A stretch of 64,000 bases of DNA from Sipunculus nudus (lineage: Eukaryota; Annelida; Sipuncula; Golfingiida; Sipunculidae). The notes under the pieces are model-generated. The model made no database searches. It was not told the DNA's origin and saw nothing but the letters and a program-made list of their open reading frames with translations. The translations under genes and the position numbers were made by a program. Below are positions 5,031 through 62,172 of the stretch, one piece after another (within the stretch, counting starts at the first letter, position 1; the number at the start of each line of letters is the position of its first letter). Location of the stretch: assembly GCA_026874595.1 (NCBI GenBank), contig CM049308.1, positions 23,338,367 through 23,402,366 on the forward strand, written 5' to 3'.

Positions 5031-6240
5031 AGCTCAGCTGACTGTAAGTCATCTGAGCTTTAGCAGTCACTCTTTGTCCGTCGTCCGTCCGTCTAGCTGT
5101 CTGTCCGTCTGTCCGTCTGTCTGTCCGTCCGTTAACCAGGCACAAATCGTAACCACTGGACCTGGAATCTTCTAACTTTACATCCAGAGAGGTAAATGAA
5201 AAATCTCCTTGGAAACCTGGAATTAGGTCTCTGTTACCCATATTCTCAATGCTATGAGGCTCTGAAGTACCCCCCAGAATAATGAAAAATTTGATACAAA
5301 AGCTCAAGTATCTGAACAACTAATGCATTGATCACCATGATTCTGTGCACAAATATTGATCATGGAGTGTTTCATCAGTTTCTGCAGACTGGTGGCGCCA
5401 CCTGTATTTTTTTAATTTTTTACAAGTTATTTCTCTATTGTTGAGACCTTTAAAGATGCGGTCATTTGTTAACAGGGCACAAATCGTAACTGCTTGACCT
5501 GGATTCTTCTTACTTTACATCCAGTGAGGTCTAAGAAAAGTCTCCATGGAAACCGGGAATAAGGTCTCTGTTACCCATATTCTTCAAACTATGTGGCTCT
5601 GAAGTACCCCCCTCCCCCTGAGTAAAATGAAAAATTTGACACAAAAGCTGAAGTATCTGAACAACTAATGCATTGATCACTATGATTCTGTGCACAAATA
5701 TTGATCATGGAGTGTTTCATCAGTTTCTGCAGACGGGTGGCGCCACCTGTATATTTTTTTTATTTTTTACTATTTTTCTCTGTTTTTGAGCCAAAGCAGG
5801 GCACAAATCATAACCATGGGACCTGGAATCTCCTTACTTTAATTTCAGGGAGGTCCATTAGAAGTCTCCTTGGAAACGTGAAATTAGGTCTCTGTTACCC
5901 ATATTTTTTTAGCTATGGTGCTTCTAAGCACCACTCAGAATGATTGAAAATTTGATACCAAAGTAGGGCAAAAATCATAACCATTTGGCCCAGAAACTTC
6001 TTACTTGACATCCTGAGAGTCCCTCAAAATTTCTCCCCAGAAACTGAACTTCGGTCACTGTGACCTATATTCCCAGAGTTTAGGGGTATATTTTAGCACC
6101 CCAGAAATAATGCAAATTACACACAAATTGCCAGATTATACTCAGGAAAGGCTGGACATTATCTTAATTAGTTGCCTGTGCAAGGACATATTGTAAACAT
6201 GTTAGTCGGCTGAGCGTCATGACCCATGGGTTACTTGTTT
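5031..6240 (+). mobile_element. Family A element, copy 1 (HINE/pearl-like)
   Basis: It begins with the hairpin AGCTCAGCTGACT / AGTCATCTGAGCT (3-nt loop, one mismatch), followed by GTCACTCTTTGTCCGTC and a GTCC/GTCT microsatellite at 5076-5132. Internal units of about 335 bp start at the GCACAAATC(G/A)TAAC motif (about 5138, 5474, 5805, 5971, the last shortened). The first two contain CTGGTGGCGCCACCTGTA-type palindromes. The tail echoes the 5' hairpin (GTCGGCTGAGC) and ends GACCCATGGGTTACTTGTTT. No protein is encoded. The build matches non-autonomous Helentron-associated elements; the family name is unknown to me. Confidence 0.75.
5076..5132 (+). repeat. (GTCC/GTCT)n microsatellite
   Basis: Tetranucleotide GTCY run just after the 5' hairpin of family A copy 1. 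The same position carries a GTCY run in A3, C, D, E and F. Confidence 0.9.
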
Positions 6241-6269
6241 TTTTTTTGTTCCACAGTATGCACAGAGAC

Positions 6270-6746
6270 TTAAAAGCCAAACTTTTTAATATCCCCATTT
6301 TGGTCTTGAGCATTCTCCAAAGCACACATTTCATACAGTTGTGTAATTTTTGCAAATGGCTTTTCAAACCTCACTGGTACTGAGAAGACACGTATGTAGC
6401 TTCCTTTGGTGACTAATATGACACTGCTTTGTGATGAAATATTCCTTTCGGCCATTAAGGGTGCTGTTCACAGCTGGTTAAACAGTGTTTTGGCCATGGA
6501 CATGTCAGAAATAGATTTCCAGAATACACAGGTGGCACTGAGGGTGAAATCTGTAGTCAAACAGTCTGGCTGTTTGCAGTAAAGTGGCCATGCAGTAATG
6601 TCCCAGAGGTCAAATTTATTAAGTGCAGCCATTCTGCCTAAACAAACCATGGGTTTTCTGTATATAAATGGCACCATTGGTATATGGATGACACCTTTTG
6701 ACTGTGTTAATGACATGGTTCCTAACTTATACAGCTGTTTTAGCAT
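6270..6746 (-). pseudogene. Decayed coding fragment of unknown family
   Basis: On the minus strand one frame stays open from 6746 to 6270 except for a TGA at 6468-6470, giving about 92 plus 65 codons read collinearly. The translation has protein-like composition, with stretches such as KPMVCLGRMAALNKFDLWD and GSYIRVFSVPVRFEKPF. A TAA lies just upstream (near 6760), and no splice donor is evident at the end. It sits 30 bp from the tail of family A copy 1. I do not recognise the family. It could be a dead gene fragment, a retrocopy or an old transposon remnant; chance openness is not excluded. Confidence 0.35.
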
Positions 6747-6779
6747 ACATTCTTATAGATGAACTAAAAACAAAAGCTA

Positions 6780-8585: not shown

Positions 8586-8589
8586 ATAG

Positions 8590-12200: not shown

Positions 12201-12204
12201 TGGT

Positions 12205-13495: not shown

Positions 13496-14658
13496 GTATC
13501 CGCCAAAACAGAGTTTTGCGGATACTATGTTTTCAGCTGCACGCCGCCACCGCCGCGTAGGTGTCCGGAGAACTCCTCCGTAACCGCTGGGCGGAATTTT
13601 ACGAAACCCGGGATTATGTTGGGGTCACATGTGAACTGCTGCGCCCCGATTTTGTTGTGACCTCTGACCTTTCCTCTGCGCTCTGCGTCCGTTTGTGCGT
13701 CTGTTTCCACACATAAATCCACATATCTCAGGAACCGTTTGACAGTTCAGGAAAATTTTTTTGCACAAATGTAGCCCTTGGATAGCTTTATAACATACAC
13801 AAAAAATGGTGGCGCCACCTGCAACCATGTTTGCACAGTGTCCATCTGTTCGTCTGCCTTGGGTTAAAATCACTCATATCTCTGCAGTGATTTGACTAAT
13901 TCACCTGAAATTTAGCATGCGCTAAATCCTGGATAGCTTTTCTGATTTTATGACAGGTGGCGCCACCTACATTCACGTTTACGCTGCAGACATCCAAGCT
14001 CATATCTCGGGAACTGTTTGACCGATTGGGCCAAAATTTTGCATGTGTATAGATCTCCCATAGCTCTTTATCATACGCAAAACTGATGGCGCCACCTGCA
14101 GCCATTTTTGCACAGCTCCCGTCTGTTTGTCTGCCATGGGATAAAATCACTCATATCTCGGCAGTGGTTTGACATATCTGCCTAAAATTTTGCAGGTTTA
14201 TACATCCCCGACAGCTCTCTTGATTTTATGACAGGTGGCGCCACCTGCATTCTAGTTTATGCAGCAGACATCCAAGCTTGTATCTTGGGAACCGATTGGG
14301 CCAAAGTTTTGCATGTGTATAGTTCTCACATAGCTCTTTATCATACGCAAAACTGGTGGCGCCACCTTCAACCATTTTTGCACAGCGTCCATCTGTTTGT
14401 CTGCCACGGGCTAAAATCACTCATAAACATATAGTGGTTTGACTTATCTGCCTCAAATTTTGCATATGTATACAACTTGGACGGCTTTCTGGATTTTGTG
14501 GTAGGTGGCGCAACCTACATACACCATTTGGCTGCAGACATCCATGCTAATATGCAACACTTCACTCTATTTCCCCTTGCCACTCAATCCATGCCTCACT
14601 TCACCCGTTCCACTCTGATTTAGGCGGATACACGCTTGTCGACTACCCGTATTCTAGT
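13496..14658 (+). mobile_element. Family B element, copy 1 (HINE-like)
   Basis: It starts with the perfect-stem hairpin GTATCCGCCAAAAC / GTTTTGCGGATAC, then a GC-rich CCGCC stretch and TGCGTCCGTTTGTGCGTC. Two alternating unit types (together about 275 bp) follow. Each is centred on (G)GTGGCGCCACCT at about 13809, 13957, 14085, 14234 and 14356, with a decayed one at 14504. Shared words include ATATCTCGGGAACCGTTTGA and TTTGCACAGCGTCC. The tail repeats GCGGATAC and ends GTATTCTAG. The GTAGTC half of the 3' hairpin seen in copies 2 and 3 is missing here. Open frames inside are by-products of the repeat. Confidence 0.8.
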
Positions 14659-15035
14659 TTTATTCTGTAGTCACCATAAAAAGGGTAATCCTACACAAAG
14701 TTCATGTTTACACGATATTTTTTTCCATCAAGCATGATAAAATTAGTATAAGCAGTATTTTTGCTTGATTTTGTTTATTTGTTTTGAAGTTAACAAAATT
14801 ACTTGATACATTATTAGGCAACTTTCCTTTTTTTCACCAATCTCTTTAGAACACTGCCTTTCATACCAGTAAAGAAATCCAAATATAGAAAGGTAAACTT
14901 GTTATTTTATTCAACTCCCTAAAATTTCTATAAAATTTTAAAAAAAGAAACAATATAACCAATAAAAATCCCAAGTTTTTTATGTCACAGTGATAAGTTC
15001 TTGACAGGAACATCATTCACAGGAACAAGTTTTTT
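14659..15035. other. Unique AT-rich non-coding sequence
   Basis: Short spacer between family B copy 1 and family A copy 2. Nothing else recognised. Confidence 0.5.
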
Positions 15036-15600
15036 AGCTCTTCTGACTGAAAGTAACCTGAGCTATAGTGATCACTTTTTGTCTGTCTTCCATCTGTCTG
15101 TCCTGCTCTCTGTCTATCCATTAACCAGGCATAAATTGTAACTGGACTTGGAAACTTCTTACTTGACCTCCAGGGAGGTCCGTTAAAAATCTCTTTGCAA
15201 ACCTGAAATTAGGTCTCTGTCACCAATATCCTTTGAGCTATAGTGCTAGTAAGTAACAAAAAATTGATAACAACTATAATGCATTGATCACCATGATCTT
15301 TGCATGCATATTCATCAAGGAGTATTTCATCTGTGCCTGCAGACTGGTGGCACCACCTGCATTATTTCAAATGTTTACAATTTTTATGCCTCGTCCACTT
15401 TGTTGTTGCCGGGGCATATAGTTTTACCCATGTGCGTCACTCCGTCCTTTCATCCTTCCATCCTTCTGTCCTTCCGTCATTCCGAAATCAAACAGTTGTA
15501 CAGACTTTTTTTTTCACAAAATTTGGCATTCAGATGATAAAATTCCTTTTGTGAATGTCTTCCTAGTCAGCTGAGCTTCATGACCGATGGGTCACCTTTC
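15036..15600 (+). mobile_element. Family A element, copy 2, with nested C fragment
   Basis: A T-run precedes a decayed 5' hairpin (AGCTCTTCTGACTGAAAG / AACCTGAGCT), followed by a GTCY-rich stretch near 15080-15119 and one internal unit (TTAACCAGGCATAAATTG) with CTGGTGGCACCACCTG. A family C fragment interrupts it at about 15386-15529. Family A sequence then resumes (ATGATAAAATTCCTTTTG) and ends GTCAGCTGAGCTTCATGACC. Confidence 0.7.
15386..15529 (+). mobile_element. Family C fragment nested in family A copy 2
   Basis: Begins with the family C head (TTTTTATGCC, then GCCGGGGCATATAGTTTTAC) and the (TCCTTCCGTC)-type microsatellite, then AAATCAAACAGTTGTACAGAC as in 29126 onwards. It breaks off in the first internal unit, so the 3' end is missing. 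Confidence 0.65.
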
Positions 15601-16559
15601 CTTTATAAAGTGTGTTTATCTATAGTACATATAGTACATAGATGTAGATTTTCCAAAGGAAATTAATTATAAGGAGTTGTTTCTTCAAAGACAAGTTCTT
15701 CAGAGGATTTTTTTGTCTTCTGATCAATTGCTGACAGAAAGCCAGCCAAAATAAAACACTATCTTTGTACATCTTAAAGTTAATTAAAACTGAGAAGAAA
15801 TACTATGACTGTATAAAAAGAAGGTATTTATTAAGGGTATAAAAGCGCATGCATATTGAGATGTATCAACTGATTTTTACAAGGTCTGTTTTTTCTGAAG
15901 TTTGTTTGTCTGCAAAACATAAGAGTCAGTTGGCATCTATGAACCAGAACAGAGACTGCATGTATTCAAAGGAATTCCATTACAGATACAACTATGGTTG
16001 ACAAAGATTTCATCATCTGGGATGGACCAGAATTCCTAGCTGTCACATCCTGATGGGATGACACAGATGGCACCTCGTTGATCCAATAAAGCTTGCTTAT
16101 AACCCCTTACATGTCTACCCCCTGGGGTTGTCTTTGAAGATTACAGCCTACCCAAAAAGTGATCTTTCAGAATGATTATCAGAAATCCATCAAATGTTCT
16201 ATGTTTCAGCATCTTTGGAAAATAGTTATTTTGTAATTTAGGCAAAGAGGTGACAGATTCAGGATTTTTTTTTATATGCTTGAAACTACAGAGTAGGATG
16301 CATTGAAATGTAATTAATTCTCTGTTTATTAAATAATCATCAGTGTAAAGCTATTATCACAGGGACAAGGCTATTGCATGCATTGGATAACCAAAGTTCA
16401 TACAACCAGTCTGAGCAAAAAAAAAGGTAATTTAAGATATTATATCTTGAACAAAACACTTATTTGATTTTTTTGGGCTTGTTTATGCTGGTGGTAATTA
16501 CCCTAAATTTTGATAGCTACGAAAGACAACAGCATGTGAACCATTTTTTATACACGTGT
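15601..16559. other. Unique AT-rich non-coding sequence
   Basis: No recognisable gene or repeat family. Confidence 0.5.
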
Positions 16560-22431: not shown

Positions 22432-23419
22432 TTGGATACTACGTTTATGACCGGGTTCTGCTGCCACCACTGTGCTGCTGCTGCATTCGTTTCCAGAATA
22501 GAATCCTTAGACCACTGGACGGATTTTTCCAAAACTTTACACGATTATAGGGTCACATGTGAACTGAAGCCAAAATATTTTGCCTTGACCTCTGACCTTT
22601 CCTCTCTCCAGTGCGTCCATCTGTGCTTCTGTTTTGACACATTAACTCACATAACTTCAGACTCGTTTGACCAATCAGGAAAAAACTTTGCACAAATGCT
22701 TTATAACATACATGGAAATGGTGACTCCACCTGCCACCATTTTTGCAGTGTCTATCTGTTCATCTGCTTTGGGATGAAATCACTTATATCTCTGCAGTGA
22801 AAGGACTTATCCACCTGAAGTTTTGCGTAGGTAATCATACTGGATAGCTTTCTTGATTTTATGACAGGTGGCGCCACCTACATTTACGTTCAGGCTGCAG
22901 ACATCCAGGCTTATATCTCAGGACTGGTTTGATGTATCCTCCTGAAATTTTGCATGTGTATAGATCTCACATAGCTCTTTATCATACACAAATCCTGCAA
23001 CCATTTTTGCACAGCGTCCGTCTTTTTGTCTGCCGTGGGATAAAATCACTAATATCTCGGCAGTGGTTTGACTCATCTGCCCAAAATTTTGCATGTATAT
23101 ACATCCTGGATAGCTTTCCTGATTTTATGAGAGGTGGCGCCACTTACGTTCATGTTCAGGCTGCAGACATCCAGGCTTATATCTCAGGACTGGTTTGACT
23201 TATCTGCCTCAAATTTTGCAATTGTATACACCTTGGATAACTTTCTGGATTTTGTGGCAGGTGGCACCACCTACATACACATTTCAGCTGCAGACATCCA
23301 TGCTAATATGCAATACACCTCTTTATTTCCCCTTGCCACTCAATCCATGCCTCACTTCACCCGTCCCATTCTGATTTCGGCGGATACACGTAGTCTCTTC
23401 TCGACTACCCGTATTCTAG
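22432..23419 (+). mobile_element. Family B element, copy 2, 5'-truncated
   Basis: The left stem of the family B hairpin is missing; sequence starts at GGATACTACG, the right stem. Internal units with GGTGGCGCCACCTACATT-type palindromes lie at about 22867 and 23132, with decayed ones elsewhere. The tail is intact: GGCGGATACACG, hairpin GTAGTC TCTTCTC GACTAC, then CCGTATTCTAG. More diverged than copies 1 and 3. Confidence 0.75.
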
Positions 23420-23792: not shown

Positions 23793-26288
23793 AAAGCTTC
23801 AATGTACCTGATATAAAAATATCTGGACCCAGAAGTAGTTTTTTTGCTTGTGTGTATATCTGTCTCCTATGAAAGTACCACAATTGGTACTGGCATCTGT
23901 AGAATAATTTATACTCTAGCAGGTCTTTAGTTAAAAGCAGATGGAATATTGAAGCTGAACTAGATAAAATGTCCAGCAATGGCACATCAAGGCATGTAAT
24001 GTCTGGATGGTTGCAAATGTTGGATTTACCATACCCTTTTGTAGGCACAGACCCAACCAAACTGAAAATATGTTATGGGTAATCCATAATATGGATAATA
24101 TTAAAAGGACAAAAAACATACAATTTATAAAGTAAATGTAAAGCTAAATTTGAGTACATAAATTAAGGCCAAAAGACTGATCCCTGGTTTCCAATTTCTG
24201 TGGAAAATCAGTTATTAAGTCTGTGTAATATCAGGAAGGCATGCCTTTCATAGATATTTCTTATTCTGTGGCTCCTGTGGAATGGTTGTATCAGTTATTT
24301 GATGAAAAGGTTTAATTAAATTTAAACAGTAATTGACCCTTAAACCAGCAAAAGGTGTAGCATGGTTGACACATTCCCTGAAATTATAATCACATCAAAG
24401 CATTAGATGAGAGAAATTCCTTAAAATGTTTTGCTCAATAAAATGTAACCTTTGCAATTTAGGAAAATTGAAAGGAGTAGAAATGTATGGTTTTACAGCA
24501 GAACATTATTTTCTTGGAATTATCAAAGCTCATATTGTAGATATTGCTCCTCTTTAAGAGCAGATTGCATCTTGTGGTTATTATAAGTGTATCTCTTCTT
24601 GACTGTGTGAAAATCTCCCAGTTGCATTTGTTTGATTAGGGCCTTGAAATTAATAAAGCTTATAATGACCTTGTATAGATTGCCCTTTTAACCATTATTG
24701 TTAAGAGGACTATTAAGAGCAGTCAAGACTGACACCTAAAGTTCTTCATTTCCTAGGTGAAGTTTCTGATATCAAAGATATTGCTTATTTGAAATCAGTT
24801 CTAAAGATATACATTTACCTAAAATGAACCACTTCTGTTGTAACTTTGGTTTCAGAAAATATGGTGAAGATACAAATTTGGACTTGAGTCTTACATCACT
24901 GCTATCCTAACATGAAACTAAAAACAGACAGATAAAATTTTTCATAAAAAAACACAGACATGCAGGACAGTATTAAACTGCTTAAATAATTACACCTGTA
25001 CCTCAAAATGTCACATCCAAGAAACTTAGCAGATATTATTATTGATGAAAATATTGTTACTCTTGAAGATCCCATGTGATGTAGTTTTCTCTAATCCTCA
25101 TGTTTGTCATGCTTTTTGTTCACAAGGTGTCCCTTAATTGCCACATCACCTCACTCAACCTACATGAATACATGAAAGTAATTTTATTTTATAATTTATT
25201 TAATAAATTTGTTTAATTTAACTCAAATTCTTAGCAAAGACACAATTGGCTTCTATGATACTTGCTGAAGAATTTTTAGGAAATCTTTCAATTTATACTG
25301 ACTATGTTAAAAAAATCTAAAAAAAAAATTAGGTACTCTTTCATGGAGTATGAATGGTATTAACCTGTCTGAGATTAGTGTTTTTCAAATCAAATATAGA
25401 TTCTTTATGGTCATATGGCCATTTATAAAAAAAAAAAAAAAGAATTTAACCAATATAGAAAGGTTTTGTTATTTGAAATCTTTAGCAGCAAATATAAATA
25501 TTATGGTATATGTTACAGGTCACATTGTCTGAACTAAAGCCTGCCAAACAGTTTTACACATTCTGTGTAGTATATACCACAAATACAATAGAACAAGAAA
25601 AACATAATTTTTACTTGCTCTGAGGTGGGAATAAACAGATAAATCAAAGAATTTATGGTGACAGAAGGACTAAAGGTGGGTTTTCAATCATGAACTAAAC
25701 TTTGTGAGTAAAGAATGGATTGACATAACTGCTTCAATATACGAAAGCAGGCAGCTGTGTTTTTTAAACTTGTTGGTCTCCTGAAGAATAAATCCTGTAT
25801 TTTAGAGCTTCTTATTGACTGGTCTCAGCTGTTATAAGGATTTGATTTAATTTTCTTTGCACCTTAGTCTAATAGTGATATTTCTTTTTTTTATGCCTTA
25901 GCTTAATGGATTCTAGAAGCAATATATCCACCAGGCTATGTAGTAGTGTGTGGATCATTTGACAGTGCAAACTGTTAACATTGATCCACATTCTTAGTAA
26001 ATGGAGGCAGTTGTGTATTTCTGATATAATTGATATGATTATATTAATTATCTGTAGGTGTTATTAGATTTTTGTGTGAATTCAAGCATAAGCCAGTTGA
26101 ATGATGGTCAACATAATAAGTGGTCATGCAAGGACACCAGCCTGATAATGACCATGTGATATTGTACAGCTACCTACAGTGTAAGTCCCTAAGTTGAGAA
26201 TTTTAATAACCTTTAACCTAATTACTATTTTAGGACATGCAAGATTGGCTTATATACCTTTTCACACATCTTTATGCATGTAATTGTC
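23793..26288. other. Unique AT-rich non-coding sequence
   Basis: Long A runs (25318-25330, 25429-25441). The minus-strand frames at 23791-24119 and other short frames have no recognisable domain. Confidence 0.5.
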
Positions 26289-26876
26289 TCTGCCATTGCC
26301 CAAGGTGCTGTTGGTGGTAGGCATAGAAATGGTGAGCCTCCGATCGTCTTTCTGTCGTGGTGCCTGTCCGTCTGTCTGTCCATCCCTCTTAGATATATTA
26401 ACGCAATAACTCGATCAAAAATAATTTTAGGTACAGTCATCAAACTTGCACCATTGATGCACCTTATCAGGAGCTAGGTCAAGTTTGAACATGGATGACC
26501 TTGACACAGTTTTTAAAGTCACAGTGGCAATAATGCAAAAATGATGTTAAAGCAATCACTCGAAAAGAATTTCAGGTACAGTCACCAAATTTTTAGCATT
26601 GATGCATCTTTTCAAGAGCTATGTCAGGTTTGAACATGGATGACATTGACACAGTTTTCAAGTTTACATAGGCAATAATGCTAAAATGATGTTATTGCAA
26701 TACCTCAAAATAAATTTAAGGCTCAGTCACCATACTTGTAACTTTGACATACCTCTTGATGCAGTTTTCAAGGTCATAGAGGTAATTTTGGTGGGTGACA
26801 TTGACCTATTTCAGATTTCATACAAGTTTTTACAACTTTTTTCCAGCTATTTTCACAAAAGGCGGGGGCATACTAG
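26289..26876 (+). mobile_element. Element D (shares its tail with family C)
   Basis: A weak 5' hairpin (TTGCCCAAGG ... GGTAGGCAT) is followed by a GTCY-rich run at 26345-26386 and three units of about 147 bp, each with GCAAT(A/C)ACTCG-type starts and GTTTGAACATGGATGACATTG-type middles. The tail AGGCGGGGGCATACTAG is the same as the end of family C (30269 onwards), including the final CTAG. No protein encoded. Confidence 0.6.
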
Positions 26877-28128
26877 ATCTGTTCCATAGATCAACTTTTC
26901 CCTTGTTCATTTACAGAAGGTCAGAGAGGTCAAATTGGTGGTTGGCTAATAGATGTTCATACCTCATCATGAAAATCAAACAGGTATTCAGATTGATTAG
27001 ATCATTAGATGTTGAAGAAATTGATGAATGACCATACATTTATATAGAGACAAAATTCAAATTAAGGTACACACATAGAGGGAGAGTTGGATGGATACCT
27101 GGTGCCTTAGTTTATTCCAATAAGTAGCACAAAGCTGGGGTTTGGAATACAAAATTAAGGATGGTACTGTGGCTGTTATTAGATGTTTATCTAAATAACC
27201 TGTAACAGTGTTGTACAAAATTCAGCTGGAAGATGTAACTTTGTTGCCTACCAATAATGTGTGAGTACTATAAAGTCCATTTGGAATCAGTATCTTTCTT
27301 ACTGAACTGTACAGCTGTTAATGTGACGTTTGATATAAACTGTATAAATTTGTTTAAAGGACTGCAATTAAGGCCTCTTGCTTTAGTGGTCAGGGAATGT
27401 GTGAAAGATCTGCATTTCTTTGCAATTCATTATGGAGGCAGCTGCATCTAGATCTGAATTATATTAAAAAATTTTAAATATATAACACCAAATATAGTTT
27501 TAATTTAAATCAGCTATTTAATGCAATAGGTTGAGAAAGAGCGTCAGTTATTATCATCCTTTAAGTGCTGCGAGATATGGTTATTTAAATAAAAATATCA
27601 ATATTAATCAATAATAAAAAATATATACTAACCTTTCTCCTGAAAATCATTATTTTATTGAGGATACCTGTATAATTTCACTCAACCACAATTCACCATG
27701 AGAATATATATACAAAAGCAGGCATTAGACCCATAGTTTTCTACAATTGCTAATAGCATTTTTTAAGTTACTCTCTTTATAATAGACTTTGCCAGGGGCT
27801 CAAGGATTTAAAGTGATGAAACTTAATTGTCACCAGCAGCTTTTACTAACTGCCCAGGAGGTTGCTTTGGGAGCATTATAGTAACAGGTTTTTTCCAATG
27901 CCAAATGATTTTGGAAGGGGTACATTTAAAAGCAATTTTTGTGATATACTGAATCAGTCTTTATGAAAGTATAACTAAATTTATGCTGTAGGCTATCTTT
28001 ATAAAGGAGATCTTGAAGATGGGAAAAATTTTGCTTGCGAGGAAAAGCTTTTATATAATACTGATAATGTTTTTTTGTTGCCTACAAAAATAACATGTGA
28101 TACACTGATAGAAGCATCTATAATTTTT
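26877..28128. other. Unique AT-rich non-coding sequence
   Basis: No gene or repeat family recognised. Confidence 0.5.
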
Positions 28129-28580
28129 GTCCCCTGCTTCCTTGGAATTAATGGGGGACATTGATTTGGGTTTATCTGTTTGTCCCTCTGTCTGCCTGCC
28201 TGCTTGTTCGTCCATCAGGTTTTTGTTTCCGTGTGATAACCTTACTGAATTTTTATCCAATTTCATTCAAATTTGGCTCAGTGATTGCTCTCATGCTTAC
28301 CTTGGTTAAGATCCATTTTGAAGTGTCTGTCTCACAAGATAATAATACAATATGATATTCCATTTTTCATATGATGAATCAGCATATTTAGTTCCACTAA
28401 TCACCAACAGGTGTCACTAGCAGTGGACATAAATTACTTGAATTTTTTGCAGTAACTGCCAGGTGCTGCCATCATTTGATTGTGGTTAAAACTAATTGTA
28501 CTTAGTCACCAAATACTTTAAAATCATCCTGGAATTGAAGGAGGAAGCAGGGGACATATATTTCTTGAATTTGCTTGTTT
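28129..28580 (+). mobile_element. Family E element, copy 1
   Basis: The head TGTCCCCTGCTTCC folds with AATGGGGGACA to form a 5' hairpin and also matches, inverted, GGAAGCAGGGGACA near 28542-28555, giving about 16-bp subterminal inverted repeats. A GTCY-rich stretch follows (28175-28215), then one internal unit (GTGATAACCTTACTGAAT, CAGTGATTGCTCTCATGC). It ends GAATTTGCTTGTTT, like copy 2. A T-run precedes it. Confidence 0.7.
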
Positions 28581-28621: not shown

Positions 28622-29125
28622 TCAATCAAATTGAGAATTAGAATTTAGCTGTTGATCCAGAAATTCAATTTGTTCAGTTTACTAATTGTCATTTATTTAT
28701 TCTGATGGCAATTTTTTGATCCATTGAAACTGACTAATTTAACTTGTCAGTGTAAAAATTTTAAAATTTAGTGGGGTCAATAAAAAGGTCATCATTGTGG
28801 CTTGAAGTGTCAGAAATTTGTAACAGATAAGTAAACAGAGTCACAGATGCTTAAACTAACAAATTGAGGCCATCAAGTGTGCTTCTTTATGGACTTATAG
28901 AATTAAAATTTAGTGGAAAGCCCCATTTGATATTTCATCAATATTGGCTATTCCTTAAAAATGTGAATAATTAACTTTATATCAGAACTAAAAATAATAC
29001 AGAAAGTGAATACGAAAACTCTTCAGTTTTGTCCACTCTATCAATTTGCTCTCTCAAAAAGAAGTCTATACTGACTCATTAGTTTAATCATGAGTGTTGA
29101 AAAATGTTTTTAAAGCAAAATTTTT
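28622..29125. other. Unique AT-rich non-coding sequence
   Basis: Spacer between elements E and C. Nothing recognised. Confidence 0.5.
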
Positions 29126-30302
29126 ATGCCCCCGCCACAAAGTGGCCGGGGCATATAGTTTTACCCATGTCCGTCATTCCGTCCTTCCGTCCTTCCGAAA
29201 TCAAACAGTTGTACGGACTTTTTTTCGCAATGCCTGCAGATATTGGCCTGATTTTTGGTGTGTGGGCAGATATAGACCAGTTACAGATCAAGTTCGCGTT
29301 TCGTCCCGGTTGACCTACTTTTGACCGTTTTACGGCTCCTAAACTTAGAAAATTTCATGAAAAATAGAAATTTCATGACAAATACACATGTACGGACTTT
29401 TTTTTCGCAATGCCTGCAGATATTGGCCTGATTTTTGGTGTGTGGGCAGATATAGACCAGTTACAGATCGAGTTTATGTTTCGTCCTGGTTGACCTTCTT
29501 TTGACCGTTTTACGGCTCCTGATCATAGAAAATTTCATGAAAAATATGAAATTTCATGACAAATACACATGTACGGACTTTTTTTCGCAATGCCTGCAGA
29601 TATTGGCCTGATTTTTGGTGAGTTGGCAGATATTGACCAGTTACAGATCGAGTTCGCGTTTTGTCCCAGTTGATCTACTTTTGACCATTTGACGGTGCTC
29701 TAACATAGAAAATTTCATAAAAAAGTGAACATGCATAGACTTTTTTTCGCAGTGCCTGCAGATACAGGCCTGATTTTTGGTGTGTAGGCAGATATTGACC
29801 AGTTACAGATCGAGTTCTTGTTTTGTCCCAGTTGACCTACTTTTGACCATTTGACTGTTCCTGAACATAGAAAGTTTCATGAAAAATAGAAATTTTCATA
29901 ACAAATGCCTATGTACTGATTTTTTTCCTCAATGCCTGCAGATACCCCCCTGATTTTTTATGTGTGGCCAGATAATGACAGTTACAGATCAAGTTTGCGT
30001 TTTGTCCCTGTTGACCTACTTTTCATTGTTTTTCGGCTCCTAAACTTAGAAAATTTCATGAAAGACGGAATTTTTATGGAAAATGCACATGTATGGACTT
30101 TTTTTCACAATGCCTGCATATACTGGCATGATTTTTGGTGTGTTGCTTGATAATGACCCGTTACAGATCGAGTTTGCATTTTGCCCTTGTTGACTTACTT
30201 TTGACCATATGACACCTCCTGAACTTAAACAATTTTTCAAAATTTTCAAATGTTTCTAATTTGCCCCAGGCGGGGGCATTCGTGTCATTCCAACACATCT
30301 AG
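29126..30302 (+). mobile_element. Family C element, full length (HINE/pearl-like)
   Basis: After TTTTT it starts with the hairpin ATGCCCCCGCCAC / GTGGCCGGGGCAT (3-nt loop), then ATAGTTTTACCCATGTCC and a TCCGTCCTTCCGTCC run. Six units of about 178 bp follow, starting near 29212, 29391, 29571, 29735, 29911 and 30091. Each has GACTTTTTTTCGCAATGCC, GCCTGATTTTTGGTGTG, CCAGTTACAGATC and TTGACCTACTTTTGACC. The tail echoes the head (GGCGGGGGCATT), has a GTGT/ACAC hairpin and ends CTAG. Units 1-3 are most alike. No protein encoded. Confidence 0.8.
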
Positions 30303-50500: not shown

Positions 50501-50599
50501 AATTTGTCACAGTTTACTCAGGGGCAACTGCCTTTCTCACCTAAGCCTGGTCAGCCCAGTGCATCAAATCAAGAAGTTTGATGTATTGGCCTAATGTTT

Positions 50600-50890
50600 T
50601 GACCTGTCTATGCGTCTTTGATGGCTTTCTTGTTCACAAGACAGGTGTCACCACCTACAATGACTTTTGCACAGTGTATGTGCCTGTGAATTTTATATAT
50701 CAGCCTGAAATTGGGCAGATTTATACATATCATAAAGCTTTGTCATAAACAAGACTGGTGGCACCACCTACATTAATTTTTGCACAGTGTATGTCCCTGC
50801 TTATTTCTCAGGAGGGGATATAAGCCTGGAATTGGGCATATGTATACATCTCTGATACCTTTGTCGTTTACAAGACATGTAGGCCTACTT
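50600..50890 (+). mobile_element. Old family B fragment
   Basis: Words in family B order: CACAAGACAGGTGTCACCACCT, GACTTTTGCACAGTGTATGT, CCTGAAATTGGGCAG, ACTGGTGGCACCACCTACAT. Both ends are lost and divergence is high. Confidence 0.6.
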
Positions 50891-51123: not shown

Positions 51124-51216
<93 letters not shown>

Positions 51217-52468
51217 TTTCCCCTGACAAAATTACTGGAGTCTGTTATTAGTGGTCCCTCCAAAGAAAGAATAATATAAAACAACTGGGATCATGATTAT
51301 TAGAAACAACACGTTTCTATTGCATTTTTCCAAATTTATTAAGACCTGTGGTTTCTAAAATACCTGTGGTTTCAAAATGTAGCAGAACAAGACAACCTAT
51401 GAATAAATGAAGGAATGAATGAATATTTAATTAAGAAAATATTAGGCCTCAGGCCTATAATTCCGATAGTCCATGCATTCTTTAATATTGACTTAAACTT
51501 GATCATTTCTTCTTTTAAAAGCATAATGAACAAAAGCTGCTAGATTATTAATAACATCAGGATTTTCATTTGACATAAGTGATACAAAAGAACATTTACC
51601 TAATTTGAAAAAAAAAATGGTCTCTCAGATTATTATATAATGGACACTTGAATTCATTATGAAATGATATTCAGTTTCAACTTGCCTTTCACCATATTTT
51701 AAACAGTAAGCACAATTTATCTCAGTCCAGTGTGTCTTATCATGTCTTCTTTTTTAATAATTTACAAATTATGTGATGAAAATCTTAATCTAGCTAAACT
51801 GTTTTTTTTATTTTTTTTTTATCAACATTCAGATACATTTCCATGGTGTGATTTGAACACTGAGTATGTTTGTAAACCTTTGTTATTTGATATGTTATTC
51901 GATCATTCTTGCAAATAAATATCCTTTAGTCTTTTCAAATGTACTGGTAACTCTAAAATCCTGCAACAACTAAGTGTAACCTAAACCCAATGAAAATAAT
52001 AAATGTTTAACTTTTGTTGCCCAAGTTTTCCTTCCCAGTTCATCAAGCTTACATATAGTTGTTTCGGATACCTATTTGGTGTCATTCTTTATATTTTTGT
52101 CCAATACCTAACACATATGAATACATAATGAATTATCAAAGCTAGGTCATTGTCCACATTCACGTAGTGCAGCAGCAGTTGGTGATGAAGAATTTATCTT
52201 AAGAATGTAAGGTTTCCCAGGTAATGACTATTTGTCTGATGACTTACCTGAACTTGTAGTGAGTTTCATGCTATGTGAAGACACAAGAGGAGTCATGTTC
52301 TACCTGTTTAGTGATATTATATACATTGTTGATTTTTCATCTTTGTGATCTTTAATATATGTTATATATAACTATATAACATGAGTCTTTTGGAAAATCT
52401 GGAAAAAGAATGAGGTCCTGAGAAGAATTCTCTTCCTTTATAGGAAATAGGAGAAAACTGGAGTTTTT
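50891..52468. other. Unique AT-rich sequence
   Basis: Apart from the long AT microsatellite at 51126-51214, nothing recognised. Confidence 0.5.
51126..51214. repeat. (AT)n microsatellite, ~44 copies
   Basis: Uninterrupted TA run of 89 bp. It creates false isoleucine-tyrosine frames on both strands. Confidence 0.95.
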
Positions 52469-52513
52469 AGCTCAGCTGACTGAAAGTCAGCTGAGCTATA
52501 GCGATCACTCTTT

Positions 52514-52556
52514 GTCCGTCGTCCGTCTGTCCGTCTGTCCGTCTGTCTGTCCGTTA
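52514..52556 (+). repeat. (GTCC/GTCT)n microsatellite
   Basis: GTCY run at the fixed position just downstream of the family A 5' hairpin. Confidence 0.9.
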
Positions 52557-54530
52557 ACCAGGCACAAATCGTAACCGCTTGACCTGGAACCTTGTAACTT
52601 GGGATTCTGAGAGGTCCATAAAAAATCTCCTTGGAAACCAGAAATTAGGTCTCTGTTACCCATATCCTTCGAGCTATGTGGCCCCAAAGTACCCCCAAGA
52701 AAAGTCAAAAATTTCATACAAAAACTTCAATATCTCATTAACTACTTGACTGATGGTCATGATTTTTGGCATACATATTGATCATGAGATGTTACATCAC
52801 TTCCTGCAGACTGGTGGCGCCACCTCTATTTTTCGATTTTTTTACTAATTTTTTTCTCTATTTTTGAGACCTTTAAAAATGTGAACATCTGTTAACAAGG
52901 CACAAATCATAAAGACTGGACTTAGAATCTTAATTCTTGACACACTGAGAGGTCCATGAAAAATCTCCTTGGAAACCAGAAATTAGGTCTCTGTTACCCA
53001 TATCCTTTGAGCTATGGGGCCCCAAAGTACCCCCCAGAATAGTAAAAAAATTCATACAAAAACTTCAATATCTCAATAACTACATCACTGATGGTCTTCA
53101 TTTTTGGCATACACATTGATCATGAGATGTTCGATCAGTTCCTGCAGACTGGTGGCGCCACCTGTACTGTTTGATTTTTTACGATTTTTTCCTCTATTTT
53201 TGAGACCTTTGAGGATGCTGTCATCTGTTAGCGTGGCACAAATCGTAACGACTGGACCTAGAATCTTCATTTTCGACACACTGAGAGACCTATGAAAAGT
53301 CTCCATGGAAACCAGAAATTAGGTCTCTGTTACCCATATCCTTCGAGCTATGGGGCCCAAAATTACCCCCCAGAATAGTCAAAAATTTCATACAAAAACT
53401 TCAATATCTCATTAACTACATCACTGATGGTCATGATTTTCGACATACATATTGATCATGAGATGTTTCATCAGTTTGTGCAGACTGGTGGCGCCACCTG
53501 TATTTTTCAATGTTCACGAATTGTTTTCTCCATTTTTGAGACCTTTAAGGATGTAGTTATCTGTCAACAGGGTACAAATCGTAACGACTGGACCTAGAAT
53601 CTTCGTTCTTGACACACAGGGAGACCCATGATAAGTCTCCATGGAAACCTGAAATTTGGTCTCTGTTACCCATATCCTTTGAGCTATGGCACTCCAAAGT
53701 ACAGCTCAGAATAATGGAAAATTTGATACAAAAGCTAAAGTATCTGAACAACTAATGCAGAGATAACCATAATTGTTTGCATGGATATTGATCATGGAGT
53801 GTTTCATAAGTTTCTGCAGACTGGTGGCACCACCTGTATTTGTTCGTTTTTTTTTACGAAATTTTTCTGTATTTTTGAGACCTTTAAAGATATGAACATC
53901 TGTTAACAGGGCACAAATCATAAAAACTGGACCAAGAATCTTCATTCTTGACACACAGGGAGACCCATGAAAAGTCTCCATGGAAACTTGAAATTAGGTC
54001 TCTGTTACCCATATTCTTTAAGCTGTATGGGTCCAAAATACCCCCCCCCCCCCAGAATAATGGAAAATTTGATACAAAAACTGCAGTATTTCAATAACTA
54101 CAACACTGATGGTCATGATTTTCGGCATACATATTGATCATGAGCTGTTCCATCAGTTTTTGCAGACTGGGTGTGCCACCTCTATTTTTTTTTCAAATTT
54201 TTACGAATTTTTTTCTTTTTTTTGAGACCTTTAAAGATGTGGTTATCTGTCAACAGGGTACAAATCGCAACAACTGGACCTAGAATCTTCATTCTTGTCA
54301 TGCAAGGAGGCCCATGAAAGGTGCCTGTGGAAACTTGAAATTAGGTCTCTGTTACCCATATCCTTCAAGCTATAGGACTTCGAAGTATCCCTCAGAATAA
54401 TGGACAATTTGATACAAAAACTGAAGTATCTGAACAACTAATGCAGAGATCACCATGATTTTTTGCATGGATATTGACCATTAAGTGTTTTTATTAGTTT
54501 CTGCAGACTGGTGGAGCCACCTGTATTTTT

Positions 54531-55701
54531 GTATCCGCCAAAACGAAGTTTTGCGGATGCTATGTTTTTGACCAATTTCCTCCGCCGCCGCGGCGTTCGT
54601 TTCCAGAGAGCTCCTCGGAGACTAATGGACCGATTTTTCCCAAACTTACACCTATTATCGGGTCACATGTGAACTGGTGCCTAACCAATTTGCATTGACC
54701 TCTGACCTTTCCTCTCTATCCAGTGTCCATTTGTGGGTCTGTTTCCACTCATAAAACCTTATATCTAGGGAACTGTTTGACCGATCAGGAAATAAAATTG
54801 ATACAAATGTAGCCCTTGGATTGCTTTATAACATGCACAAAAAATGGTGGCGCCACCTGTAACCATGTTTGCACAGTGTCCATCTGTTCATCTGCCTTGG
54901 GTTAAAATCACTCATATCTCTGCAGTGAATTGACTAATTCACCTGAAATTGGTCATGTGTATACATCCAGGATAGCTTTCTTGATTTTATGACAGGTGGC
55001 GCCACCTACATTCACGTTCACGCTGATGACATCCAAGCTTATATCTCGGGAACCGTTTGACCGATCAGGAAATAAAATTTATACAAATGTAGCCCTTTGA
55101 TAGCTCTGTAACATACACAAAAAATGGTGGCGCCACCTGTAACAATGTTTGCACAGCGTCTGTCTGTTAGTCTGCCATGGCCTAAAATTACTCATTTCTC
55201 TGTAGTGGTTCGACATAACTGCCTAAAATTTTGCAGGTTTAAACATCGTGGACAGCTTTCTTGATTTTATGACAGGTGGCGCCACCTACATTCTAGTTAA
55301 CGCTGGACACATCCAAGCTCATATCTCAGGAACCATTTGACCGATTGGGCCAAAATTGTGCATGTGTTTAGATCTCACATAGGTCTTTATCATACACAAA
55401 ACTGGAGGGGTTACCTGCAAAGATTTTTGCACAGTGTTTGTCTGTTTGTCTGCCATGGGCAAAAATCGCTCATATACATGTAGTGGTTTGACTTTTCTGC
55501 CTAAAATTTTGCAGGTGTATACAACTTGGACAGCTTTCTGGATTTGTGGTAGGTGGCACAACCTACATACACATTTAGGCTGCAGACATCCATGCTAATA
55601 TGCAACATACCTCACTCTATTTCCCCTTGCCACTCAATCCATGCCTCACTATCCGATTTTGGCAGATACATGTAGTCACTTGTCGGTTACCCGTATTCTA
55701 G
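54531..55701 (+). mobile_element. Family B element, copy 4, nested in family A copy 3
   Basis: 5' hairpin GTATCCGCCAAAAC / GTTTTGCGGATGC, then CCGCCGCCG. GTGGCGCCACCT palindromes lie at about 54848, 54997, 55127 and 55278. The tail has a decayed GTAGTCACTTGTCGGTTAC hairpin and ends CCGTATTCTAG. T-runs lie on both sides, and family A unit sequence continues across the insertion. Confidence 0.85.
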
Positions 55702-55886
55702 TTTTAAAAGTTTACACATTTTTCTCTATTTTTGAGATATATAAATACAGACTAAATCTTGGCCTGTTGGTTAATCTGTTTGATGCTTCAGTTGAATGGG
55801 TATATACTACCATTCTGATGATAAAATTTCCTTTTGCGAATCTCTTCCCAGTCAGCTGAGCGTCATGACCCATGGGTCACTTGTTT

Positions 55887-57292: not shown

Positions 57293-58599
57293 TTGGGTTT
57301 GTCTAGCTGTCTGTCCGTCTGTCTGTCTCTGTCCGTCAGGGTTTTTCTTTCTGTGTGATAACTTTCCTTAATATTATCTGATTTCATTCAAATTTTGGTC
57401 AGTGATTGCTCTCATGCTTATGTTGGTTGGGATTGGTATTGACGTGTCTGGCTTCTGTGTGTCTGTCTGTCACTTTTCTGTCTGTCAGGTTTTCGTTTCC
57501 ATTTGATAACTTTCCTAAATATTATCCAATTTCTTTCAAATTTTGATCAGTAGATAACTCTGTGAAAGTCTTTGTCTCAGAATTCAAGGGCTTTATTTCA
57601 TCAACAATACAGAATCAGGCTTGACGTAGGTACCTGTAAACACATAACATATAACATAGATCAGTTGAATATCCTCTATTCAGTGATTGCTCTCTTGCAT
57701 ACGTTGGTTGGGATTGGTTTCGGAGTATCTGGCTTCTGTCTGTCACATTGTCTCTCTGTCTGTCAGGTTTTCATTTCCGTGCGATAATTTTCCTGAATAT
57801 ATCCGATTTCATTCAAATTTTTGTCAGTGATAAAATTAAATTCTCATGGTTTCCTTGGTTGGGATTGGTTTTGGAGTGTCTGGCTTCTGTCTGTCACATT
57901 GTCTGTCTGTCTGTCAGGTTTTCATTTCCGTGCGATAATTTTCCTGAATATATCCGATTTCATTCAAATTTTTGTCAGTGATAAAATTAAATTCTCATAG
58001 TTTCCTTGGTTGGGATTGGTTTCGGAGTGTCTGGCTTCTGTCTGTCACATTGTCTGTCTGTCTGGTTTTCATTTCCGTGCGATAATTTTCCTGAATATAT
58101 CCGATTTCATTCAAATTTTTGTCAATGATAAAATTAAATTCTCATGGTTTCCTTGGTTGGGATTGGTTTTGGAGTGTCTGGCTTAATTATGTCTGTCTGT
58201 CTGTCACTCTGCCTGTCAGTTTGTCTGTTTTTTGTTTCTGTGGGATAACTTTCCTAAATATTATCTTAGGTCATTAATATTTTGGTCAGACATTGCTCCC
58301 ATGCAAACCTTGATTGGGATTTGTTTTGAAGTGTCTGGCTTTTGTCTGTCTGTCACTTTGTCTGTCTGTCTGTCAGGTTTTTGTTTCCCTGCGATAACTT
58401 TTCTAAATATTATCTGATGTCATTCAGATGTTGTTCAGTGATTGCTCTCATGCTTACCTTGGTTGGGATTTGTTTTGAAGTGTCTGGCTTATGTCTGTCT
58501 GTCTATCTGTCTGTCACTCTGCCTGTCTGTCCGTTATCAAGCATGAAAAACAACAAGATCCCAAAGCGGAGGACATTAAATCCATGAATTTGCTTGTTT
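57293..58599 (+). mobile_element. Family E element, copy 2, 5'-truncated, ~8 units
   Basis: The hairpin head is missing; it begins TTTGTCTAGCTGTCTGTCCG with a GTCY microsatellite. About eight units of roughly 148 bp follow (near 57330, 57440, 57728, 57877, 58025, 58172, 58330, 58480). Each has a GTCTGTCTGTCAC run, GATAA(C/T)TTTCCT(A/G)AATAT and TTGGTTGGGATTGGTTT. It ends AGCGGAGGACAT and then GAATTTGCTTGTTT, as in copy 1. A 128-bp insertion interrupts one unit at 57552-57679. Confidence 0.75.
57552..57679. mobile_element. 128-bp insertion in family E copy 2
   Basis: The repeat word GATCAGTGATTGCTCTC is split: GATCAGT ends at 57551 and TCAGTGATTGCTCTC resumes at 57680, a TCAGT 5-bp duplication. 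The inserted piece has no recognised ends. Confidence 0.5.
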
Positions 58600-59279: not shown

Positions 59280-59695
59280 CAGGGCTTGACATTATGGTCA
59301 ACCCTGTGCTTTGGGGCAAGTAAAAGTTCCTGAAAGTGGTACATGGAAGGGCAAACAAAATTTAGTCTTAATTCTCCTACTTGCCTGACTTATTAATGGG
59401 TCCAACATAAACCTTAAAACAATCATAAGTCAACCATTTTCCTTCTTGGAGTAAAGTAAAAAAATATTTAAATATCTTAAACTACATTAACATTTACCTG
59501 TACAAATACTGAAGAGAAATATTATTTTTAACATTCAATAAGATATATAATACAATCAGGTTGAACTAACTTTGTGTTTGTAGGGCCAGTAAAAAATCAT
59601 GTAGGACAACTAAAATTTAGACTTTACTTGCCCAGCTGGTCAAGTACATATAAAAATTAATATGAAGTAGTTTCAGATGATAATGTCAAGCCCTG
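59280..59695. mobile_element. 416-bp hAT-like MITE
   Basis: CAGGGCTTGACATTAT at 59280-59295 and its exact reverse complement at 59680-59695 form 16-bp perfect terminal inverted repeats. A second inverted pair, GGGCAAGTAAA and TTTACTTGCCC, lies further in. CAGGG starts are typical of hAT. Flanking 8-mers (TGCCACAA, CTGAAGAT) do not match, so the duplication is lost or the boundaries differ. No coding capacity. Confidence 0.7.
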
Positions 59696-61144
59696 CTGAA
59701 GATTAATTGATTCTGCCAACTGTGTCAGAAAAAAGGATAAAAGTGAGAAATGGCTTATCATGGGATCAATTTAACCTTTAAAGGGGCTTATAAGTCTGAC
59801 ATCCAACTTGTTAATTAACTAAAGATAATCCCTGAAAACTTTATAGAAATAGGCCAGAACCGGCTGACCCAACCACAAACAGGCTGAACATTTTGTCTTA
59901 TCCATGTGTTTATAACAAGTGGGGGGCCCATAAAAATAACCCAAACACATTCAACAGAACATCTGGTGGCAAGCCATATAAAACAGATATTTGCAAAAGG
60001 CATTTTGCAGCTAGTGACTGTTTAACTTCTGCATATATGCACCAACAACATTTTGTTGTGAGGTTTTTCCACTTTCCAATATTGCTTTTAGATACATCAT
60101 AGAAGCATTATTAGAACTTTTTATGACAGGAGTTACCTTTAGTTTATTAATATGAACTGAAATTAATCCAGAAATCACATAAATTCTAGGCCTGTGAATT
60201 GCTAAGGGGTCTTCAATTCAATTTGATTTTCGATTATTGGCTTTCAGTTCAATTCTCGAATTACTTATTGTATACATGCAGTCACAGTATTCTGTCAGAG
60301 ACATATATCTACTAAAATTTTTAATCCCATATGATGCTATGAAATACAGATTATTAAATACCTGATTATTATATACCTTAATGCAGACCAAGTAATATTT
60401 AAATCTTCTCATCTTTTATTGTGCTACCATCTAATGAAGGATTCAAGGTCACTTTCTTTGTTAAATAACAGTGCTGCTTCATGTTCACTGTTTATCTGTT
60501 CATAGTTAAGAGCTAGAGAGTGATAAAGGTATGAGAATAAATGAAATGCAAGAAATAAAATTAACCTACCTAGGTATTATTTCATGCCTGGCTTGATTAA
60601 AGACTGGCTTAATGACTGGCTTTGATTCAATGCATTGATTATTCAGTGCATTGTTACAGCCTTAATAAACTCTATAGAAAATGCTGGTGAATATATAGCT
60701 TCCTTTAAGCTGCCAGGAGTTCTGCTACATTGAAACAAAGCAAGCTCCACTGGCAGTCCCAGCAGGAACACTTCTTAGTTCACGGTTACACATTAATCAT
60801 ACCATGCATTAGAAGCTGTTTCATGTCTGGAAGACCAGCAACCAGATTCAAGGACCAATACAGAAAGTTCTTATGTCAACGTGTGATCTCACAAGTGGAG
60901 TCTTGGAGAACCCCTTTCATCAGTGTTGATGACATGTCTAGCCATGTGGGAGGAGGAACAATAGCGGAGAGTGCCAGGTTAATCCCCTCCTAAAACAAAC
61001 AGCAGCTGTTAAAACACCTGGATATAGGTCTTATAAAAGGCAACAATTGAAGCAGAATTTAGTTTTCAAAGGTGTTTTGAACTGCTTTTGAATGGTATCT
61101 GTTATCTTCCATTCTGTAAATCAAAACCTTTGATATATTTTTTT
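59696..61144. other. Mostly unique sequence
   Basis: The frame at 60730-60993 is less AT-rich but has no recognisable domain or splice sites. TTCAATTCAATTTGATTTTC near 60213 resembles a hAT-type subterminus. Nothing else. Confidence 0.4.
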
Positions 61145-62172
61145 AGCCCTCAGCCCTTAGGCTGATGGGCTATTGTCGTCACCCAAGCTGTCCGTCTGTC
61201 CGTCGGGCGTCCGTTAACTTTTACCTTGTGAGCGGGATATCTTGAAAAGGATTCTCCGTCAGAATTTTATTTCCTTGGTAAAGATGTATATCGACAAAAT
61301 CTCGGTCAAGTTTGAAGATGGGTGACCTTGACCTATTTTTCTACATTTTAGAGCTGATTATAGAAAAACTCTTATATGCTTATTACTCAGTAATCATTTG
61401 GTGGATTTTCACAAAAATTACTATGATTATTGGGACTGATAGTCTGTACCTGCTACACAAGTTTGGTGGCGCCACCTACAATTTCTGATTTTTAATTAAT
61501 TTTTATCGGATTTTTCAACTTTGGGCTTGTGAGCGGGATATCTCTAAAAGGATTCACCGTAGGAATATTATTTTTTCGGTGAAGATGTATATTGACCAAA
61601 TATCGGTCAAGTTCGAAGATGGGTGACCTTGACCTATTTCTCTACGTTTTAGAGCTAATTATAGAAAAAACATTTAGAAGCTTATTTCTCAGGAACCATT
61701 TGGTGGATTTTCACAATACTTACTATGATCATAGGGACTGATGGTCTGTAACTGCTGCACGAGTTTGGGGTCGCCACCTACAATTTCTGATTTTTAATGA
61801 ATTTTTCTTGGATTTTTCAACTTTGTCCTTGTGAGCGGGATATCTCTTAAATGATTCACAATAGGAATTTTATTTCTTTGGTGAAGATGTATATGGACAA
61901 AATCTCGGTCAAGTTCGAAGATGGGTGACCTTGACCTACTTTTCAAGGTCACAGAGCTTATAATAGAATAAAACTTAGAAGCTTATATTTCAGGAAGCAT
62001 TTGGTGGATTGTTATGAATCATGGTACATACCTCTCCATTTTAAATTCATAACTGAGACATGTACAGATATACATCCATGGGAGAACAGATATTTAGTAC
62101 TTGTTACTGTTACCACCCCTAAACACTGTTCTTTTGGCTGAGGGCTTTTGTCAGCTTCTGCTGATATTCTAG
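61145..62172 (+). mobile_element. Family F element (HINE-like), three ~300-bp units
   Basis: After TTTTTT it starts with the hairpin AGCCCTCAGCC CTTA GGCTGATGGGCT, then GTCGTCACCC and a GTCCGTCTGTCCGTCGGGCG run (61188-61213). Units begin at TTGTGAGCGGGATATC near 61228, 61526 and 61829. Each has AAGATGTATAT, TCGGTCAAGTT(C/T)GAAGA and TGACCTTGACCT; the first two have GGTGGCGCCACC or GGGGTCGCCACC. The tail echoes the head (GGCTGAGGGCT), then TCAGC TTCT GCTGA and TATT, ending in CTAG (62169-62172). No protein encoded. Confidence 0.8.
61323..61937 (-). repeat. TGACCTTGACCT motif in each family F unit
   Basis: Exact copies at 61323-61334, 61624-61635 and 61926-61937. On the minus strand the motif reads AGGTCAAGGTCA, two AGGTCA half-sites in direct contact and a perfect ERR/SF-1-type monomer site. 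Confidence 0.6.

What the first reader, a model, noticed from the sequence alone, without database searches (positions are those of the whole stretch)
5031..62172. At least five unrelated families share one modular build: HINE/pearl-like elements dominate the window
Seen: families A (5031, 15036, 52469), B (13496, 22432, 31553, 54531), C (29126; fragment 15386), D (26289), E (28129, 57293) and F (61145). Intact copies show a T-run, a 5' hairpin with an 11-14 bp stem, a GTCY-rich microsatellite, then 1-8 tandem units of 130-340 bp, then a tail that repeats the 5' hairpin sequence and a short terminal motif. Known: Helentron-associated elements (HINE, DINE-1) and the bivalve pearl family have subterminal inverted repeats, GTCY microsatellites and tandem cores. 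Inferred: these are such elements, all mobilised by a machinery encoded elsewhere. That several sequence-unrelated families keep the same order suggests strong selection on the termini or exchange of modules.
Basis: partly seen in the sequence, partly recalled or inferred. Interest (0 to 1): 0.75.

Follow-up and report, generated by a model that had tools for sequence, protein, structure and literature searches.

The report
Helentron passengers and their autonomous partner
These repeats look like small non-coding passengers of rolling-circle jumping genes; for one family a large, protein-coding element with the same two ends was found elsewhere in the genome, and three of the families share an odd 12-letter palindrome present more than 100,000 times in that genome.

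Summary
The modular build is real in A, B, C, E and F, but the elements cover about a fifth of the window, and D's stated hairpin is absent. The build is that of published Helentron-associated elements (HINE; Cg_HINE of oyster). Two 3' classes exist: CTTGTT (A, D, E) and CTAG (B, C, F). For A an autonomous partner was found: Helentron copies of 15-16 kb on four contigs start with A's 5' end (up to 54/55 identical to window copy A3), end with A's 3' end (up to 34/35), and one carries a 2342-aa frame with Rep, PIF1 helicase and a weak endonuclease match. Insertion sites show no consistent target duplication. 'Unrelated' is partly wrong: A, B and F share the perfect palindrome GGTGGCGCCACC (19 in the window, 0 in 50 shuffles; 111,729 in the genome against 14 for the reversed word). 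No partner was found for the CTAG class, and C's ends could not be checked in other copies. Best reading: new members of a known kind, with a partner identified for A, which the oyster papers whose passages I read did not report for theirs; the palindrome is the open, novel part.

The parts
5026..6240 (+). family A copy 1 (CTTGTT class), tandem units 5131-5790
13496..14657 (+). family B copy 1 (CTAG class); no GTCY array by eye
15030..15601 (+). family A copy 2, holding a fragment of C (about 15386-15530)
22432..23419 (+). family B copy 2, degenerate 5' end
26273..26907 (+). family D, old; no hairpin at 26289; copies end at CTTGTT (26902-26907); 5' limit uncertain
28123..28580 (+). family E copy 1 (CTTGTT class), ends confirmed in other copies
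29121..30302 (+). family C (CTAG class), ~180-bp units; ends not tested in other copies
31553..33027 (+). family B copy 3, intact
52464..55886 (+). family A copy 3, 6 units; its ends match the autonomous Helentron (up to 54/55 and 34/35)
54531..55701 (+). family B copy 4, nested in A copy 3
57293..58599 (+). family E copy 2, 5' end degenerate, ends GCTTGTTT
61140..62173 (+). family F (CTAG class); 39 other scored copies 95-97% identical
5391..61476 (.). 19 perfect GGTGGCGCCACC palindromes, all inside A, B and F copies

Best explanation
The elements are non-autonomous Helentron-associated rolling-circle elements. Family A is mobilised in trans by a 15-16 kb Helentron with the same two ends. Shown: shared termini, Rep and helicase (and a weak endonuclease match) in one frame at the C17 copy, exact ends at four loci, no consistent target duplication. 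Inferred: Rep nicks at the 5' T-run and hairpin, the helicase peels off one strand through tandem units of any sequence, the 3' inverted arm plus CTTGTT acts as terminator, and the endonuclease opens T-rich DNA. Many short A elements are probably internal-deletion relatives of the Helentron, because 33 of 40 scored places share only the first part of its 5' region (their 3' ends were not examined). The CTAG-ended families (B, C, F) are inferred to work the same way, probably with another Helentron-type enzyme that was not found here.
For: PF14214 gave 143 matching rows, one in a 2342-aa frame at C17:35630192; the last 666 aa of that frame match PIF1 (1.2e-15) and, under the cut-off, Exo_endo_phos (22.7 bits against 24.5). 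Its 3' flank carries the A 3' end about 1 kb after the stop; six other copies stop at query 1121-1128 there, four of them about 4.7 kb from a PF14214 match. The 5' ends of four copies begin TTTTTAGCTCAGCTGACTG with GTCY and A-type units after unrelated flanks. Identity to window A3: 5' 54/55 for three copies and 52/55 for C17; 3' 34/35 for two and 33/35 for two; unit 278/342. A similar 3' end lies 4.5 kb beyond the Rep match at C7:71189229 (1658-aa frame), not checked in other copies. 33 of 40 scored places match the Helentron 5' region at 90-94% and stop at 1320-1421 of 3000. B in A and F in A: no target duplication. F and B copies are 94-97% alike, so they moved recently.
Against: No transposition assay. 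Window A copies share only about 35 bp with the Helentron at the 3' side; the 100 bp before do not align (57/118), so they are not its direct derivatives. Copy A1 does not show better conserved ends than interior (49/57 and 31/36 against 301/339). The C17 frame departs from a relative's (L072) just before the last endonuclease stretch, so full function is open. One of four Helentron copies (C5) has AGTGCG on both sides. A's 3' palindrome folds no better than shuffles (A3 43 of 200, A1 83 of 200 as good). Which Rep clan the C17 element belongs to was not tested.
Confidence: 0.85

Rival explanations
1. The A ends beside the Helentron are separate A insertions on either side, not the Helentron's own ends.
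For: Helentron 5' parts hold a second, inner A 5' end and a B-type passenger, so nesting is common.
Against: Four copies with unrelated flanks start and stop at the same motifs; six other 3' flanks stop within query 1121-1128; what precedes the 3' end resembles the A body no better than shuffles do (55.5 against a maximum of 59).
Confidence: 0.07
2. One machinery moves all six families; CTAG and CTTGTT are variants accepted by the same enzyme.
For: Similar order of parts, T-rich joins, B and F insert into A; a B-type element rides inside the A-type Helentron family.
Against: 3' ends and inverted arms differ by class; the two coding elements whose 3' end I could recognise both have the CTTGTT type.
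Confidence: 0.25
3. The shared palindrome is only an inherited remnant of a common ancestral tandem unit, without function.
For: 100-bp neighbourhoods are weakly similar in global alignment: A-B1 2 of 500 and A-B2 3 of 500 shuffles as good (but 47 and 14 of 500 in local alignment), B1-F 0 of 500 global and 2 of 500 local; the two B sub-units are clearly homologous.
Against: A-F and B2-F neighbourhoods show no similarity (global 168 and 410 of 500 as good) yet keep the perfect 12-mer; it lies among the better conserved windows of its unit (rank 25 of 323, 12 of 139, 9 of 139).
Confidence: 0.5
4. They are MITEs, cut-and-paste elements with terminal inverted repeats.
For: Inverted arms near both ends; PMC4067079 (passages) says such elements had been annotated as MITEs.
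Against: Arms are subterminal, no consistent duplication, the partner of A encodes Rep and helicase.
Confidence: 0.02

Closest known systems
HINE / DINE-1 and Helentrons of mites, mosquitoes and flies (PMC4067079, passages read)
   Same: subterminal inverted repeats, 5' inverted repeat, microsatellite, tandem repeats, T-run ends, TT targets, no duplication, Rep/Helicase/Endonuclease partner sharing ends
   Different: a CTAG-ended class with the same 5' build; a nested second 5' end; the shared palindrome
Cg_HINE elements of Crassostrea gigas (PMC7492417, passages and Discussion part 1 of 2 read)
   Same: same order: subTIR, IR, GTCY-like microsatellite, tandem units, 3' subTIR and palindrome; several sequence-unrelated elements; oligo-T targets
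   Different: that paper could not relate any autonomous element to its HINEs, here A has a partner; monomers there average 140-180 bp, here units reach about 336 bp
CTAG-ended Helitron-like elements with subTIRs in C. gigas (PMC7992393, passages read)
   Same: CTAG 3' end together with subTIRs, as in B, C, F
   Different: those insert between A and T in 86% of cases and only one of those with subTIR and IR had a microsatellite; F here is followed by T in 30 of 30 and TT in 26 of 30
proto-Helentron of Phytophthora infestans (PMC4067079, passages read)
   Same: 5' TT and 3' CTAG
   Different: lacks the endonuclease and inserts between A and T; no sequence comparison made here
pearl family, MgE, DTC84 (named in PMC7492417)
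   Same: architecture as described there
   Different: sequences not held; no comparison made

Membership tests
HINE (family A) | subterminal inverted repeats of 11 bp or more, shared with a Helentron | tested here: met
   A3 against Helentron copies: 5' up to 54/55, 3' up to 34/35
HINE (family A) | subfamily rule: 80% or more over the last 60 bp of the partner (PMC4067079) | tested here: not met
   window A3: 34/35 over the last 35 bp, the preceding 100 bp do not align (57/118). Eleven other free-standing places share the last 120-165 bp at 82-91%. So same family, other subfamily
HINE (A, B, C, F) | 5' inverted repeat forming a hairpin with the subTIR | tested here: met
   A3, B3, C, F: 0 of 200 shuffles as good
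HINE (E) | 5' inverted repeat forming a hairpin with the subTIR | tested here: inconclusive
   E1: 17 of 200 shuffles as good
HINE (D) | 5' inverted repeat forming a hairpin with the subTIR | tested here: not met
   139 of 200 shuffles as good
HINE (all) | 3' stem-loop | tested here: inconclusive
   B3 and F: 0 of 200 shuffles as good; C 15 of 200; E1 no fold (200 of 200); A3 43 and A1 83 of 200; D not folded
HINE (B, F) | no target duplication, T-rich target | tested here: met
   B in A (L007) and F in A (L030); window B4 fits but its T-run blurs the join; F 28 of 30 with five or more T. Not tested for C, D, E
HINE (all) | no coding capacity | tested here: met
   no frame of 130 aa or more from ATG, GTG or TTG in the window
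Helentron (C17 element) | Rep, helicase and endonuclease in one frame | tested here: met
   PF14214 in a 2342-aa frame; PIF1 in its last 666 aa; Exo_endo_phos there at 22.7 bits, under the cut-off of 24.5, so the endonuclease is the weakest part
HINE (B, C, F) | a Helentron with the same ends | tested here: inconclusive
   3' flanks of five coding elements examined: L070-L073 by alignment to the ends of A-F, L075 by motif listing only; no B, C or F end
pearl family | sequence relation to the published pearl elements | not tested
   those sequences are not held

The most novel reading that the evidence does not exclude
GGTGGCGCCACC is a functional module carried by different HINE families: a binding or cruciform site, kept by selection while the units around it diverge, that serves transposition or host interaction and has been spread about 112,000 times (one per 12.8 kb) by rolling-circle elements.
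Probability: 0.35. Interest if true: 0.75.

Novelty: new member of a known kind. Interest (0 to 1): 0.5.

Why it matters
The autonomous partner of tandem-repeat HINEs was unresolved in the oyster papers whose passages I read (PMC7492417; PMC7992393); here family A is tied to a coding Helentron by both ends, so the trans-mobilisation model becomes testable with a defined donor and helper. The palindrome, present 111,729 times against 14 for its reversed control, is a very large set of identical candidate sites, many at spacings typical of these elements.

Tried and rejected
MITE reading: rejected (no consistent duplication, Rep-helicase partner). Clan-1 Helentron (L045, 2250 aa, OTU-Rep-PIF1-endonuclease) as partner of A-F: no end of theirs in L069 and L070 above shuffles, no exact end motif pair in the 15 kb held; it lies near another HINE-type 5' end on the opposite strand. 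L072 and L073 flanks: no A-F end. Similarity of the 100 bp before the palindrome between A and F, and B2 and F: not supported. B as passenger of one Helentron copy only: rejected, other copies match across it too. Fold of A's 3' palindrome: not better than shuffles; one search folded a wrongly placed stretch for it, and the L071 stretch was cut off-centre. The palindrome as a published motif: one unrelated paper holds the 12 letters.
Full report
What is there. The window lies in an unnamed 1.43-Gb genome. Families A, B, C, E and F have T-run, 5' hairpin (weak in E1), tandem units and a tail that repeats the 5' arm in their better copies; A1, B2, B4, D and E2 keep only 5-7 nt of it. No frame of 130 aa or more starts in the window, and no tRNA or Rfam match was found. 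D has no hairpin. The named elements make up about 13.5 of 64 kb by my sum.

Ends in other copies. F: 39 other scored copies are 95-97% alike; 30 of 30 fetched loci have CTAG then T, 26 of 30 TT, and 28 of 30 five or more T before the hairpin. B: 39 other scored copies at 94-96%; the five of eight loci that my pattern caught run from GTATCCGC to GTATTCTAG. E: 39 other copies, 81-86%, with ends at the T-run (32 of 39) and CTTGTTT (31 of 39). D: 70-81% in the first 40 rows, 21 of which end at query 640-653, around CTTGTT. First-look candidates were 6414 (B), 3345 (F), 3123 (E), 2156 (D); these are not copy counts. C did not complete. So there are two 3' classes: CTTGTT (A, D, E) and CTAG (B, C, F), C by the window copy alone.

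Insertion. B inside A (L007) and F inside A (L030) rejoin A without duplicated target; in L007 the join lies in a run of T, in L030 some bases are uncertain because the element's own T-run is counted in the flank; window B4 in A3 is compatible but blurred. Of 34 B and F insertions examined, five have a flank inside an A-, B- or F-like core (L007, L013, L015, L020, L030). One F copy is followed 12 bp later by a partial F copy in the same orientation, a head-to-tail arrangement.

The partner. PF14214 gave 143 rows (150 of 195 candidates scored; some elements give two rows). Thirty loci fall into several clans; the C17 element was not among them, so its clan is untested. It has a frame of 2342 aa and, about 1 kb after its stop, the A 3' end. 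A letter-free search with that flank shows six more copies stopping at query 1121-1128 (five at 98-99%, one at 89%), other related pieces that stop earlier or pick up again at 989-1124 or 890-1124, and eleven free-standing short matches to the last 120-165 bp at 82-91%. The 5' side was followed through a B-type passenger that other copies also carry and an inner A 5' end with units to the outer end: copies at C17, C10, C5 and C1 begin TTTTTAGCTCAGCTGACTG after unrelated flanks; C15:45213903 begins at the inner A end instead. From these ends the elements span about 14.9 (C17), 15.7 (C10), 16.1 (C5) and 15.9 kb (C1) (arithmetic). Identity to window A3 is 54/55 at the 5' end for three copies and 52/55 for C17; 34/35 at the 3' end for two and 33/35 for two; 278/342 and 275/344 in units. 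A1 gives 47-49/57, 30-31/36 and 301/339, so in A1 the ends are not better kept than the unit; A2 gives 46-48/55 and 29-30/37. The last 666 aa of the C17 frame match PIF1 and, below its cut-off, Exo_endo_phos. A similar 3' end lies 4.5 kb beyond the Rep match at C7:71189229, and the C10 copy sits beside such an end. Thirty-three of 40 scored places match the Helentron 5' part at 90-94% and stop at 1320-1421, as expected of internal-deletion relatives; their 3' ends were not examined.

How it works. Shown: shared ends, coding domains, recurrent boundaries, no consistent duplication (one of four Helentron copies has AGTGCG on both sides). Inferred from the published Helentron model (PMC4067079, passages): Rep nicks at the 5' end, strand displacement, termination at the 3' arm, insertion in T-rich DNA. 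The double 5' end suggests that a Helentron landed in an A element and was then moved from the outer 5' end; this would be a direct route for exchange of 5' modules. That is an inference.

The palindrome. GGTGGCGCCACC occurs 19 times in the window, all in A, B and F, and in none of 50 dinucleotide shuffles. Genome-wide it occurs 111,729 times, the reversed word 14 times. Of the 99 gaps between the first 100 places, 39 have B-like, 7 A-like and 1 F-like spacing, 44 exceed 1 kb and 8 are other. In global alignment its neighbourhood is weakly similar between A and B and between B1 and F, not between A and F or B2 and F; locally A-B is not clear (47 and 14 of 500 shuffles as good). It is better conserved than most of its unit but not the most conserved part. 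No perfect copy lies in C, D or E of the window. Whether it is functional is open.

Known work. The architecture, the oligo-T target and several unrelated families in one genome are published for oyster (PMC7492417, passages and Discussion part 1), and CTAG-ended elements with subTIRs too (PMC7992393, passages). The first could not relate an autonomous element to its HINEs, the second detected no autonomous sequences. My searches bearing on an autonomous partner in molluscs (seen as listings; passages of PMC8268682 and PMC11136912) showed none, within an open-access library only.

Noticed in passing
window 50560-50880: B-like core units with a near-perfect palindrome (GGTGGCACCACC at 50757), outside the listed families.
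   Followed up: partly
window 22000-22120: Fragment resembling the A tandem unit (65% over 131 bp), some 300 bp upstream of B copy 2.
   Followed up: no
window 38256-40946: 46-bp satellite, about 54 copies, with strong GC skew.
   Followed up: no
window 8665-9100 and 16658-17020: Stretches similar to the Helentron's 5' non-A region (59-76%): possibly further old Helentron or HINE remains.
   Followed up: no
L070 (C8:80149625-80149705, minus strand): Another HINE-type 5' end (TTGCTTGCCGGAAATC hairpin, GTCTGTTT microsatellite, ~330-bp units), doubled within 76 bp, beyond a 2250-aa OTU-Rep-helicase-endonuclease frame on the other strand.
   Followed up: partly
L074 (reverse strand, positions 1963-2822): B-type element carried as passenger in the A-type Helentron family; other copies match across it, with extra unit matches.
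   Followed up: partly
L079 (C10 3' flank): Helentron 3' end followed after about 11 bp by a second 3' end like that of L075: insertion beside an older terminus.
   Followed up: no
L015 / G000:C3:29299623-29301217: F copy followed 12 bp later by a 5'-truncated F copy in the same orientation.
   Followed up: partly
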